Origin: Pseudoclavibacter sp. CFCC 11306
GTDB lineage: Bacteria > Actinomycetota > Actinomycetes > Actinomycetales > Microbacteriaceae
Direction of reading: 5' to 3'
Length of the DNA stretch: 64,000 nt
NCBI RefSeq assembly: GCF_008831235.1
Contig: NZ_WBKF01000001.1
Coordinates: 1,236,529 to 1,300,528, forward strand
The notes beneath the pieces are model-generated. The model was not told the DNA's origin and ran no database searches. It worked only from the letters and a program-made list of their open reading frames with translations. Position numbers and translations under genes: made by a program. Positions 7,029 to 11,601 of the stretch are shown piece after piece; position 1 is the stretch's first letter; each line of letters starts with the position of its first letter.

Positions 7029-7964
7029 TTGGACTACATACAGGCCGGCGGGATGGGGGCGCTGCTCAACAACGGCCGCCCCTCCCTGCTGGTGATCCAT
7101 TCCATGGAGAACCCGCTGCAAGTGGGCCGGGCACGTGGCATTGCCAAGTACTTCGCCGGGATCAACACCGCGTCCGCGCACTACTGTGTCGGCCCTGACG
7201 AGGTCATCCAGTGTGTGCCGACGAACCGGAAAGCATGGCATGCCGGGCCGAACGCGAACGCGTTCACCCTCGGCTACGAGCAGACCGGGTACGCCGCCTA
7301 CTCCCGGTCAGACTGGCTGACTGCCACGGGTCGAGCACAGTTGGCGAACCTCGCCTCGGTCTGCCGTGCGGACGCCGCCCGCTACGGCATTCCTATCCGG
7401 TGGGCCACGGATGAGCAGATCCGCGCCGCACGCTACGGCACCCCGGCCGGTTTCTGCACGCATGCCGACATCAGCCGGGTGCTCGGCGGCACCAATCATT
7501 GGGACCCCGGAAACAACTACCCCCGCGACCTGCTCATGCAGGCCATGAACGGACAACAGATCGGAGACGACATGCCATCAGTGACAGACATTTGGGACTG
7601 GAAGATCGGCCAGAACGGCATCTACGGGAAAGACAACATGCCCGCCTGGCAGGTGCTCGGCTACACGCACGCCGACGGGCTCTGGACACAGGGGCTCGTC
7701 AAGGCGCTGCCGGGCACGATCCTGGGCACGAGCATCAAGGACGCCGACGGCATCAACGGCACGGTCGGCGACCGTCTCGCCTGGATTGACAAGCGTGCGA
7801 GGGACACCGAGGCGAAGGTCGACCAGGTCGCCGCAGCTGTGACCGCCCTCGGCCAGACCATCGAAGCCATGAACACGGGGCAGATCGCAGAGCAGGTCAA
7901 AGCCCAGATCACGGACGCCCTCAAAGGACTGTCCATCACTCTCACCACGAAGGAGAACGCATGA
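7029..7964 (+). CDS. Endolysin, N-acetylmuramoyl-L-alanine amidase (Amidase_2 type)
   Basis: The protein has 311 residues and a TTG start, chosen because AAGGAG (7017-7022) lies six bases upstream. Residues 20-165 form an amidase_2/PGRP-like domain that cuts the bond between MurNAc and L-Ala in peptidoglycan. Candidate zinc ligands are His24 (VIHSMEN), His145 (CTHAD) and Asp159 in HWDPG, with Glu84 (GYEQTG) as candidate catalytic residue. Residues 178-235 form a separate region of unknown role, possibly wall-binding. Residues 240-300 are a predicted coiled coil. No signal peptide is seen, so export should depend on a holin; the next gene is a holin candidate overlapping by ATGA. Confidence 0.88.
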   Translation: MDYIQAGGMGALLNNGRPSLLVIHSMENPLQVGRARGIAKYFAGINTASAHYCVGPDEVIQCVPTNRKAWHAGPNANAFTLGYEQTGYAAYSRSDWLTATGRAQLANLASVCRADAARYGIPIRWATDEQIRAARYGTPAGFCTHADISRVLGGTNHWDPGNNYPRDLLMQAMNGQQIGDDMPSVTDIWDWKIGQNGIYGKDNMPAWQVLGYTHADGLWTQGLVKALPGTILGTSIKDADGINGTVGDRLAWIDKRARDTEAKVDQVAAAVTALGQTIEAMNTGQIAEQVKAQITDALKGLSITLTTKENA

Positions 7965-8344
7965 CCGTCACCACGCCCACGAACGAGTCCGGGGCCGTCT
8001 ACAACAGCCTGCCGGCGAAAGCACGACAGGCCGTCTACTGGGCGTACACCGCCGCTGGCATCAGCCTCGGCGCCGTGCAAGTCGCCTACGCCACACTGGA
8101 GCACGCACAGCCCGGCTGGCTGAAAGTCGCGTTGGCGGTGTTCACGTTCCTCGGTGGTGCGGTCGGGATCGTCGCAGCCACCAACACGAACAAAACCCTG
8201 CCTGACGTCGAGCCCGCGGTCGACCACTCGCACGACGTGGCCACGATCGCAGACCTCATTGGCGACACCACAGACACCACCCCAGAGCCTGCGGCCGAGC
8301 CCGCCACCTACCAGGCGGCCGCAGACCCCACGAAGGAGAACTGA
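7961..8344 (+). CDS. Holin candidate (two membrane segments)
   Basis: The protein has 127 residues and its start overlaps the endolysin stop (ATGA), indicating coupled expression. Two hydrophobic helices lie at about 24-46 and 52-70, followed by an acidic Pro/Thr/Ala-rich tail. Small size, two helices and the position after the endolysin fit a phage holin that permeabilises the membrane at lysis. No family is recognised from sequence alone. Confidence 0.65.
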   Translation: MTVTTPTNESGAVYNSLPAKARQAVYWAYTAAGISLGAVQVAYATLEHAQPGWLKVALAVFTFLGGAVGIVAATNTNKTLPDVEPAVDHSHDVATIADLIGDTTDTTPEPAAEPATYQAAADPTKEN

Positions 8345-8876: not shown

Positions 8877-9044
8877 TCAACATGCTGACAGTTTGGCGCG
8901 ATTACGCAGCGTGTCTCGGCGCTGAGCCTCACCACGTACCAGCCATTCCGCTTCTTGGCGAGCTTCAGCCTGCTGGCGACGGGCTTCCTCTGAGAGAGTC
9001 ACGCGCTTCGAAGGTTGCGCTACAACCTTTTTAGTCTTCCTCAT
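8877..9044 (-). CDS. Small charged helical phage protein (55 residues)
   Basis: The reading frame of 55 codons starts MRKTKKVVAQPSKRVTLSEE and continues with an Arg/Gln/Glu-rich helix. The ATG at 9044 has GGAAGGGAG upstream at good spacing. The sequence is strongly amphipathic and charged, with no hydrophobic segment; it could bind nucleic acid or a protein partner. It is the last gene of a leftward group behind the GAF-like gene, 53 bases after it. Codon use is less G/C-biased than in the late genes, consistent with a separately acquired gene. Confidence 0.55.
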   Translation of the reverse strand: MRKTKKVVAQPSKRVTLSEEARRQQAEARQEAEWLVRGEAQRRDTLRNRAKLSAC

Positions 9045-9097
9045 GTCCACTCCCTTCCTCGTTCTTCCACACTAGTGGCTGCGTGTGACATTGGCCC

Positions 9098-9991
9098 TTA
9101 TTTTTCAGTGCCGTTCCGAATCTGAAACCCAACTGTGATGAGCCCTGCGAGCAGTCTCATGACACGTTCGTCAGTCGGGTCGAGGTCACCAGGCTCAGCT
9201 GAATCGACCGTCAGCATGCCGTAGACGCGATCTTCGTGCTTCAGAGGTGCCGAGATGTATGTCGCATACCCGTTGCCAGACCCTTGCCAGTCGGGGTCGG
9301 TTTCATCAGCCACGTTCCCGATGAACTTCGGCTTGTGGGCTTTGGCAAGCCAAGCAAGCACCTTGTCACCCCGACCGCCATCGCCAGATATAAACGGTCG
9401 AGGCTCTTCGTCTCGACCGTTCCCTGGCGGCGCGAAGTAGTTCATGACGACCAGTTTTGTTTTCAGCCCTGAGCCTGACTCTCGACGGTACACGACCATT
9501 CGGTACTTTTCTGCAGAAGTGATCAGCATAGGCGCCATCCCAAGCGCTGTACCCACCAGCTGGACAAGCTTCGCCTCGCGTTTATTTGACTTGCACGCAG
9601 CCAGATACCGAAGGTCATGAACGACTGGAAGGAATGCCGCTTTGAGCGCAGCTTGGAGACTCACTGCCTCCTGTGTGGCCTTCTCAATCTCTGCATCTTT
9701 GGCCTTGATGGCATTGGATAGTTCCTGGTCAGCCTTTTCTTTGGCCGTAATCTCAGCCTGGCGATAGTTGCCCATTTGAAGGATTTTGACGACCAGCCCG
9801 ACTACAGCACACACTACTCCAAAAACCAACAGTAGCATGTTTGTGGTGTCAGCGCCGAACAAAGTGAGCAACAACGTTGAAACTATGCCTAAAACGCTTG
9901 CAACTACATCAGGCAGCCACCATATACGGGGAAACCACGCATCAACCCAGCGCTTGACTCGATCCCGCATCGCCTGGGTTCCATTAGTCAT
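9098..9991 (-). CDS. Membrane-anchored GAF-like sensor protein (prophage accessory gene)
   Basis: The protein has 297 residues from ATG at 9991; a TTG 24 bases upstream is possible. Two membrane helices lie near the N terminus (about 25-46 and 50-72). A Lys/Glu/Ala-rich coiled coil spans about 75-120. The C-terminal part (about 125-295) ends with a GAF-like pattern (ISAPLKHEDRVYGMLTVDS). GAF domains bind small molecules including cyclic nucleotides and often dimerise. The gene is visibly richer in A/T than its neighbours and lies in the accessory slot between lysis genes and integrase. Lysogenic conversion, superinfection exclusion or defence is plausible, but no nucleotidyl cyclase or other partner is visible. 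Confidence 0.6.
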   Translation of the reverse strand: MTNGTQAMRDRVKRWVDAWFPRIWWLPDVVASVLGIVSTLLLTLFGADTTNMLLLVFGVVCAVVGLVVKILQMGNYRQAEITAKEKADQELSNAIKAKDAEIEKATQEAVSLQAALKAAFLPVVHDLRYLAACKSNKREAKLVQLVGTALGMAPMLITSAEKYRMVVYRRESGSGLKTKLVVMNYFAPPGNGRDEEPRPFISGDGGRGDKVLAWLAKAHKPKFIGNVADETDPDWQGSGNGYATYISAPLKHEDRVYGMLTVDSAEPGDLDPTDERVMRLLAGLITVGFQIRNGTEK

Positions 9992-10042: not shown

Positions 10043-10234
10043 CTAGTCGTCTTGCTGTCCATACCGGCACTGAATTACTCCCTCGACCATCGCCACCCGC
10101 TGCTCCCACTCCTCCAGGCTCACCGGCCCGCCGACACACAGCGCCCTGTATCTGCGCAGCCAAGCCAGCCGCTCCTCCAGCTCCGCGATCTCGTCATCAG
10201 TGTGCGCGGCCTCCACAGCAGGATCAATCATCAT
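10043..10234 (-). CDS. Small coiled-coil protein coupled to the integrase
   Basis: The protein has 63 residues, and its ATG overlaps the integrase stop codon (ATGA at 10,231-10,234), so it is translated with or after the integrase. It is acidic and helical (TDDEIAELEERLAWLRRYRA). A small gene coupled to an integrase raises the possibility of a directionality or regulatory factor. Excisionases are usually basic with a winged helix, which is not evident here. Function unknown. Confidence 0.6.
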   Translation of the reverse strand: MMIDPAVEAAHTDDEIAELEERLAWLRRYRALCVGGPVSLEEWEQRVAMVEGVIQCRYGQQDD

Positions 10235-11457
10235 GAGAGCAGTCTGACAGAGCGCGCCAGTGGGGCTGTGGATAAGCCGTTCTTTGGCAGGGCTTTGGGA
10301 GAAGTGACAACGCTGTCAGGGCCCATAATCCGCTCGAGCGCATCCACAGCATCCTGCTGAGCCTGCGGCATCAGATGGCCGTAGATGCGTGTCGTCGTGC
10401 GGATGTCAGCGTGGCCCAGCCGCCTCGACACCACATACAGAGGCACGCCAGCCTGGATCAGCCACGACGCATGCGTGTGCCGCAGGTCATGCGGCCGCGG
10501 GCACTTCCCCAACCCCTCCGCCTGTGCGCCCTGCACGGCCTGCTGCCACGCCGCCTGGTGAAAGTTCGTGTTCCGCAACGGCCCCGCCCACTTGTTCTCG
10601 AACAGCCAGTGCGAGCGCCGCTCCACGGCGACCAGTTCCTCAGCGAGCTCGACACGAATCGACACGTCACGCACCGACTGATCGTTCTTCGGCGGGCCGA
10701 TGATGTTACGGCGACGGACGCTGCGCGTCCACGCTTTCGTCACGTGCACGATCGGCACGCTCCCCGACATGTCCAGGTCAGAGACGTTCAGCGCCGACGC
10801 CTCGCTGTATCGCAGCCCCGACTCCACCAGGAAGCGCGTCAGCGGCTGGTAATACTCGGGCACGTGCTCGAGCAGCAGGTCGAATTCCGGCCGGGTCAGG
10901 AACGTCGCCCGGCGGCCGCCACGCTGATCGCGCTGCAGCTCCACCTGATCGCACGGGTTGTCCGCACGCCAGCCGCACCGAATCGCCGTCTTGAATGCCG
11001 ACGACAGCAGACCTTTCGCGTTGTGAATGGTCTTCGCTGACTTGCCCCTCCCCCGCTCCCACTGCACCCACTCGACGATATGGTCGGCGGTCACATCCTC
11101 GACGAGGAGCGCGCCGAGCTGCCCGAGCAGGTGGTCGCGGGCGAGCGCCCGGTAGCCGTCCACTGTCCCGTCCGTGGGGCGTGTCAGGGAATTGATGTGC
11201 CGCTCGATCATCTTCGCCACCGTCGGCTTCGTGGCGTTCGTGCGGCGCAGCGTCTCGACTGCGAGGGTGAGCGACTGTCCATTCGCGTCGAGCAGCTGCC
11301 GGTACGTGGTCGCGTCGCGCTCGGTGGGGAATGTCTCGGAGCGCTGTCGCTTCGTGACGGGGTCGCGCCACAGCACCCGCCACGTGGTGGTGCCGTCTTT
11401 TCGGGCGTAGGAACGAATTGAGGCCATGCCTCTCAGCATGGCCTCAACCACCGACAT
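10231..11457 (-). CDS. int: Tyrosine recombinase (phage integrase)
   Basis: The protein has 408 residues. An AP2-like arm-binding region (about 11-60) is followed by a SAM-like core-binding domain (about 78-165) and the catalytic domain (about 185-375). The catalytic set is visible: Arg216 in ESGLRYSEA, candidate Lys257, His323 and Arg326 in HDLRHTHAS, His349 in GHADIRT, and Tyr359 in RIYGH. It catalyses site-specific integration and excision. The 5' end faces tRNA-Ser 56 bases away. The start is uncertain: Met1, Met7 and Met11 are all possible, and the latter two lie within the arms of a perfect inverted repeat. Confidence 0.95.
   Translation of the reverse strand: MSVVEAMLRGMASIRSYARKDGTTTWRVLWRDPVTKRQRSETFPTERDATTYRQLLDANGQSLTLAVETLRRTNATKPTVAKMIERHINSLTRPTDGTVDGYRALARDHLLGQLGALLVEDVTADHIVEWVQWERGRGKSAKTIHNAKGLLSSAFKTAIRCGWRADNPCDQVELQRDQRGGRRATFLTRPEFDLLLEHVPEYYQPLTRFLVESGLRYSEASALNVSDLDMSGSVPIVHVTKAWTRSVRRRNIIGPPKNDQSVRDVSIRVELAEELVAVERRSHWLFENKWAGPLRNTNFHQAAWQQAVQGAQAEGLGKCPRPHDLRHTHASWLIQAGVPLYVVSRRLGHADIRTTTRIYGHLMPQAQQDAVDALERIMGPDSVVTSPKALPKNGLSTAPLARSVRLLS
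11418..11447. repeat. Perfect 11-bp inverted repeat over the integrase start codons
   Basis: TTGAGGCCATG (11,418-11,428) and CATGGCCTCAA (11,437-11,447) are exact inverted copies separated by eight bases. Each arm contains one possible integrase ATG (codons 7 and 11). It may be an operator for a phage repressor or integrase itself, or an mRNA hairpin that restricts translation of integrase. Confidence 0.8.
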
Positions 11458-11513: not shown

Positions 11514-11601
11514 TGGCGGTGACGGCGGGATTTGAACCCGCGGTAGGTTGCCCTACACATCATTTCGAGTGATGCACTTTCGGCCGCTCAGACACGTCAC
11601 C
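11514..11601 (-). tRNA. tRNA-Ser (anticodon CGA), likely phage attachment site
   Basis: The minus-strand sequence folds as a class II tRNA. The acceptor stem is GGTGACG paired with CGTCACC, the anticodon loop is CTCGAAA (anticodon CGA, decoding UCG), and the long variable arm is GTAGGGCAACCTAC. The T arm is GCGGGTTCAAATCCCGC, and the gene encodes G plus CCA at the 3' end. The 3' end borders the prophage integrase, the standard position for a phage attB/attR site. The tRNA appears intact after integration. Confidence 0.93.

What the first reader, a model, noticed from the sequence alone, without database searches (positions are those of the whole stretch)
9098..9991. Prophage membrane-anchored GAF-like protein in the accessory slot beside integrase
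Seen: two membrane helices, a coiled coil and a GAF-like C-terminal domain, on the opposite strand to the late operon, and richer in A/T than flanking genes. Known: this slot in prophages often holds genes expressed in the lysogen, including superinfection-exclusion and defence genes, and GAF domains bind small ligands including cyclic nucleotides. Inferred: it may be a ligand-sensing membrane effector acting in the lysogen. No cyclase or other partner gene is visible.
Basis: partly seen in the sequence, partly recalled or inferred. Interest (0 to 1): 0.62.

Follow-up and report, generated by a model that had tools for sequence, protein, structure and literature searches.

The report
Prophage membrane-GAF gene with small partner

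Summary
Window 9098-9991(-) encodes a two-helix membrane anchor, a long helix and a GAF domain (Pfam GAF_2 2.4e-9; predicted GAF fold, VIA Z 16.8). It lies between the lysis cassette and the integrase of a ~40 kb prophage bounded by a 28-bp att repeat in tRNA-Ser, and is A+T-rich. 'No partner gene' is probably wrong: a co-oriented 55-aa ORF with a strong ribosome site follows (8877-9044). In about 30 homologues across Actinomycetota the TM-GAF gene is usually followed by a small, mostly Arg-rich ORF (22 of 28 versus 37 of 348 control genes), often overlapping by 4 nt. Most of these small proteins form detectable families, but the window's own does not. Three homologues carry a Panacea antitoxin-domain gene (PF13274) directly downstream instead. 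A TM+GAF protein paired with PanA, toxFtsL-D9 of Gelidibacter, is a validated toxin (Ernits 2023). Gordonia phage GMA4 has the same order: integrase, TM-GAF, unannotated small ORF. Best reading: a prophage toxin-antitoxin-like (abortive-infection) module whose membrane GAF protein is the toxin or effector and whose small protein restrains it (confidence 0.5). No function was tested. It is a new variant of a known kind.

The parts
9098..9991 (-). TM-GAF gene (297 aa): membrane hairpin, long helix, cytoplasmic GAF domain
9764..9925 (-). two hydrophobic segments (residues 23-76), putative membrane hairpin with both ends inside (topology inferred from flanking Arg/Lys)
   Evidence: hydropathy; model confidence low here
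9596..9763 (-). charged long helix / putative coiled coil (residues 77-132)
   Evidence: DSSP of the model
9107..9589 (-). GAF domain (residues ~135-295)
8877..9044 (-). candidate partner gene, 55 aa, Arg/Lys-rich (pI 11.2), 53 nt after the TM-GAF stop; not detectably homologous to other partners by profile
9050..9060 (-). ribosome-binding-like sequence GAGGAAGGGAG before the partner ATG
   Evidence: sequence
10043..10234 (-). 63-aa acidic ORF of unknown function overlapping the integrase stop by 4 nt, upstream of TM-GAF
10231..11457 (-). tyrosine integrase of the prophage, co-oriented and upstream
   Evidence: phrog_1 3.1e-73
11514..11541 (.). att core: 28-bp direct repeat inside the 3' end of tRNA-Ser (11514-11601 -), second copy at genome position 1207887
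7029..8344 (+). endolysin (7029-7964) and holin-like gene (7961-8344, by position and hydrophobicity only): convergent late operon end that borders the slot
   Evidence: endolysin; second gene without a family match

Best explanation
The TM-GAF gene and the 55-aa gene behind it form a two-gene toxin-antitoxin-like (abortive-infection) module carried in the lysogeny end of the prophage. Shown by computation: membrane anchor plus GAF fold; in the family, a small mostly Arg-rich ORF usually follows directly; three relatives carry a Panacea-domain gene there instead; the order integrase, TM-GAF, small ORF recurs in GMA4 and one more prophage. Inferred: the TM-GAF protein is the toxin or effector, held as a membrane-bound dimer with its GAF domain in the cytoplasm; the small protein (or PanA) binds and restrains it; infection by another phage, or loss of the prophage, frees it, and it then blocks division or an envelope function, as toxFtsL-D9 does in E. 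coli. Whether the GAF domain binds a small ligand or only the partner is unknown.
For: Small co-oriented ORF with a ribosome site: 22 of 28 non-redundant members (PanA members left out) against 37 of 348 control genes from the same loci (Fisher p about 8e-15). Profiles built without a given partner still find it as the first ORF outside the training loci and their copies, among 10,125 ORFs: 11 of 11 in group A, 8 of 9 in group C, 2 of 2 in group E. Panacea (PF13274) sits directly downstream in L097 (2.2e-16) and L098 (2.8e-16) and in L129; the TM-GAF proteins of these match the small-partner family at 3.9e-16 over the GAF region. toxFtsL-D9:PanA, a TM plus GAF toxin, is experimentally validated (PMC10440598). 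Gordonia phage GMA4: integrase, TM-GAF, 55-aa ORF overlapping by 4 nt with AGGAGG. L081: integrase, TM-GAF, small ORF. L097: TM-GAF-PanA lies between a tRNA and a lysis cassette, as in the window.
Against: No function was tested. The window's partner is not found by any partner profile (group D, 0 of 4); only its nearest relative, L080, gives a marginal alignment (score 51, shuffle p 0.003 before correction for 26 comparisons). It lies 53 nt away, not overlapping, and about 11% of control genes have such an ORF by chance. The PanA-bearing members form one separate clade (support 92/74), so partner exchange may have happened once. The toxFtsL-D9 sequence could not be obtained, so homology to it was not tested. 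Several members are chromosomal without a mobile-element marker, and no control for mobile-element enrichment was made.
Confidence: 0.5

Rival explanations
1. Stand-alone (or partner-regulated) ligand sensor: the GAF domain binds a small cytoplasmic molecule and the membrane hairpin acts on the envelope of the lysogen; it is not a toxin held by an antitoxin.
For: Real GAF fold, with ligand-binding GAF structures among the matches, including Lcd1 with cAMP; membrane hairpin.
Against: The match list is led by many unrelated GAF proteins, so no ligand is indicated; a conserved small partner and three Panacea pairings are not expected for a stand-alone sensor.
Confidence: 0.2
2. Superinfection exclusion or prophage-mediated defence without intrinsic toxicity: a membrane protein plus small co-expressed protein that blocks or aborts infection by other phages, like CarolAnn gp43/gp44 (a membrane protein and a co-expressed partner that are not toxic alone).
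For: Lysogeny-end location beside the integrase in the window, GMA4 and L081; precedent PMC6426606.
Against: Family also sits on plasmids and in chromosomes without a visible prophage; pairing of relatives with an antitoxin domain points to a toxic component.
Confidence: 0.17
3. Regulatory or physiological membrane module with no defence role, for example one that couples host state to lysogeny or excision, with the small basic protein binding nucleic acid.
For: Co-orientation with the integrase; small partners are mostly very basic (median pI 11.2).
Against: No DNA-binding domain was recognised in the partners scanned; plasmid and chromosomal copies have no integrase to regulate.
Confidence: 0.08
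4. In this window the 55-aa ORF is spurious and the TM-GAF gene is an orphan or decaying member that has lost its partner.
For: No convincing homologue found for the ORF in phages or in 40 related genomes; not recovered by profiles.
Against: GAGGAAGGGAG ribosome site, same slot, length, charge (pI 11.2) and strand as partners elsewhere.
Confidence: 0.05

Closest known systems
toxFtsL-D9:PanA toxin-antitoxin system of Gelidibacter mesophilus (Ernits et al. 2023, PMC10440598)
   Same: Toxin of similar length (281 aa) with membrane helix region and a GAF domain, next to a neutralising gene; three relatives of the window protein also have a Panacea gene directly downstream.
   Different: Partner in the window and in most relatives is a small non-Panacea protein; host is an actinobacterium; an FtsL-like region was not tested; toxicity untested; sequences not compared.
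TM-GAF protein (gp45) of Gordonia phage GMA4 (NC_030939)
   Same: Same architecture and position: integrase, TM-GAF, small ORF overlapping by 4 nt, convergent with the lysis end.
   Different: Only distantly similar, detected by profile; its small ORF is unannotated and not recovered by the partner profiles.
CarolAnn gp43/gp44 prophage defence (PMC6426606)
   Same: Prophage-expressed membrane protein with a co-expressed partner in an actinophage, abortive-infection type.
   Different: Four membrane helices and a DUF4747-like partner; no GAF domain reported.
Gordonia phage Finkle 'Membrane protein' (A0A9E7NJ10)
   Same: Best viral structure match over nearly the full length, Foldseek E 1.8e-11, 23% identity.
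   Different: Unstudied as far as found; neighbourhood not examined here.

Membership tests
GAF domain proteins (Pfam GAF_2 / GAF) | Sequence match above the curated cut-off | tested here: met
   38 bits against 28.6 and 31.8 against 22.4
GAF domain proteins (Pfam GAF_2 / GAF) | GAF fold | tested here: met
   VIA Z 16.8 to 3w2z over 167 residues
GAF domain proteins (Pfam GAF_2 / GAF) | Bound small ligand | not testable with these tools
   no ligand can be inferred from the fold
toxFtsL-D9:PanA (PanAT) systems | Membrane helices plus GAF domain in the toxin | tested here: met
toxFtsL-D9:PanA (PanAT) systems | Panacea (PF13274) antitoxin gene adjacent | tested here: not met
   No Pfam match in the window partner; no PF13274 match in the whole genome G000. 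Met in relatives L097, L098, L129.
toxFtsL-D9:PanA (PanAT) systems | Sequence homology to the G. mesophilus toxin, FtsL-like region | not tested
   sequence not available here (supplements not readable)
toxFtsL-D9:PanA (PanAT) systems | Toxicity neutralised by the partner | not testable with these tools
   needs expression assays
SLATT membrane effectors | SLATT domain match above cut-off | tested here: not met
   16.8 bits against a cut-off of 41
CBASS / Pycsar cyclic-nucleotide systems | Adjacent cyclase | tested here: inconclusive
   Neighbours are integrase, endolysin and small ORFs; PADLOC was run on four proteins only; the genome was not searched for cyclases

The most novel reading that the evidence does not exclude
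A widespread actinobacterial toxin-antitoxin or abortive-infection family, often on prophages and plasmids, in which a membrane-anchored GAF toxin is held by a fast-evolving 50-75 aa Arg-rich protein, a new antitoxin class that a Panacea domain can replace.
Probability: 0.4. Interest if true: 0.72.

Novelty: new variant of a known kind. Interest (0 to 1): 0.55.

Why it matters
If true, a single validated oddity (toxFtsL-D9) becomes one branch of a large family with a second, very small type of partner, missed by annotation in at least one isolated phage (GMA4). It would give a ready set of prophage, phage, plasmid and chromosomal pairs for testing how a GAF membrane protein is switched and whether prophages use it against other phages.

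Tried and rejected
Close homologues in sequenced phages: none at 1e-3 with the window protein; only GMA4 through another member. One plasmid match. PADLOC gave only weak LeoB/LeoBC matches (0.007-0.017), read as low-specificity helix matches. PHROG spanin and holin matches (0.06-0.2) lie on the anchor helices only, so a lysis role was rejected. SLATT below cut-off. ATP synthase b-subunit matches are long-helix matches. GAF hits elsewhere in the phylum search are mostly other multi-domain GAF proteins and were not counted. L096 was left out of the family because its reading frame breaks off; L113 has no small ORF behind it; L082 and L092 have ORFs of doubtful character, although they count as positives in the position test. 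GMA4's small ORF resembles group A by eye (NPEEY..) but no profile finds it. Viral scan for Panacea-type TM-GAF found nothing. Promoter scan found none and its one terminator is no better than chance.

Full report
Observation. The gene at 9098-9991 on the minus strand encodes 297 residues. Residues 23-50 and 47-76 are strongly hydrophobic. Its C-terminal half matches Pfam GAF_2 (2.4e-9) and GAF (2.3e-7), both over the curated cut-offs. AlphaFold on a seven-sequence alignment gives mean pLDDT 77.6: a long helix to about residue 132, then an alpha/beta domain. That domain aligns with solved GAF domains at Z 16.8 over 167 residues. The anchor is modelled at low confidence. G+C is 52-56% over the gene against about 65% around it.

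Setting. The gene is in a real prophage. A 28-bp repeat in the 3' end of tRNA-Ser (11514-11541) recurs about 40.2 kb away, and the late genes lie on the plus strand (most read by eye, the endolysin by profile). On the minus strand the order is integrase (10231-11457), a 63-aa ORF overlapping it by 4 nt, TM-GAF, then a 55-aa ORF at 8877-9044 preceded by GAGGAAGGGAG.

Family. Searches of related genomes, plasmids, viral contigs and species genomes gave about 30 relatives, usually 20-30% identical to the window protein, nearly all with hydrophobic segments followed by a GAF domain. Conserved stretches include Y.TFIS.PI and YGMLTVD.P..G.L.

Partner. In most relatives a small ORF on the same strand follows at once, often with a 4-nt stop-start overlap. 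With a ribosome-site requirement, 22 of 28 non-redundant members have one, against 37 of 348 other genes of the same loci. The small proteins are mostly basic and Arg-rich (median length 58, pI 11.2), but high-G+C DNA favours Arg-rich reading frames, so homology is the better test. Profiles built with one partner left out recovered the held-out partner ahead of all other ORFs outside the training loci and their copies, among 10,125, in groups A (11 of 11; motif DPD.YF..AR..AR or RW..GE...D.YF), C (8 of 9; DLSDP......A....E..RR) and E (2 of 2). The groups were made by eye from the same sequences before the test, which favours recovery. In group D, which holds the window, L080, L084 and L093, none of four was recovered. 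The window's partner aligns best with that of L080 (score 51, shuffle p 0.003 uncorrected), and L080 is also the window protein's nearest row in the tree. So the window partner is a good candidate by position and ribosome site, not by homology.

Panacea. In L097, L098 and L129 the following gene is a Panacea (PF13274) protein. Their TM-GAF proteins match the small-partner family by profile at 3.9e-16 over the GAF region. They form one clade (92/74) apart from the rest, so a single exchange is enough to explain them, and which partner came first is not known. In L097 the pair sits between a tRNA-Thr and a phage lysis cassette, the same kind of slot as in the window.

Mobile elements. Direct evidence of a phage or plasmid: the window; GMA4; L021 (viral contig); L081 (integrase 2e-57), L095 (tape measure 1.5e-85), L097 (endolysin, holin), L098 (anti-repressor) and L099 (integrase 3e-78, with a SIR2_2 protein next door); plasmids pTC1 and NZ_CP026950. 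Others, such as L082, L085 and L087, show no such marker. No enrichment control was made.

Isolated phage. In Gordonia phage GMA4 the TM-GAF gene follows the integrase on the same strand and faces the lysis genes; a 55-aa ORF with AGGAGG overlaps its stop by 4 nt and is absent from the GenBank annotation. The protein is a family member by profile (1.6e-13).

Literature. toxFtsL-D9 of Gelidibacter mesophilus is a 281-aa toxin with a GAF domain and a membrane-located FtsL-like helix, neutralised by PanA; in E. coli it causes filamentation and late lysis (PMC10440598). The term occurs in only one paper of the library.

Judgement. Shown: fold, anchor, prophage slot, and a recurrent two-gene arrangement whose second gene is a small protein or a Panacea protein. 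Inferred: the TM-GAF protein is the toxin, the small protein restrains it, and the module acts in the lysogen against other phages or prophage loss.

Noticed in passing
L155:6501-6668 (Gordonia phage GMA4 NC_030939): An unannotated 55-aa ORF with AGGAGG overlaps the stop of gp45 by 4 nt and is followed by a terminator-like hairpin; probably a missed gene.
   Followed up: partly
window 10043-10234 (-): 63-aa acidic ORF overlaps the integrase stop by 4 nt; no family match. Could be an excision or regulatory protein.
   Followed up: no
L099:7814-9523 (-): A SIR2_2-domain protein lies directly behind a TM-GAF gene and its small ORF, with an integrase beyond: a possible defence island.
   Followed up: partly
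L121 and L122 (same-class genomes of 7-8 Mb, family f21): Shorter TM-GAF relatives followed by small ORFs with a shared R.WMAGE..(S/T)D.Y motif, suggesting that the module is wider than the order first searched.
   Followed up: partly
L084: TM-GAF pair flanked by genes that look like restriction (HsdS/HsdR-type) and helicase genes; read by eye, not tested.
   Followed up: no
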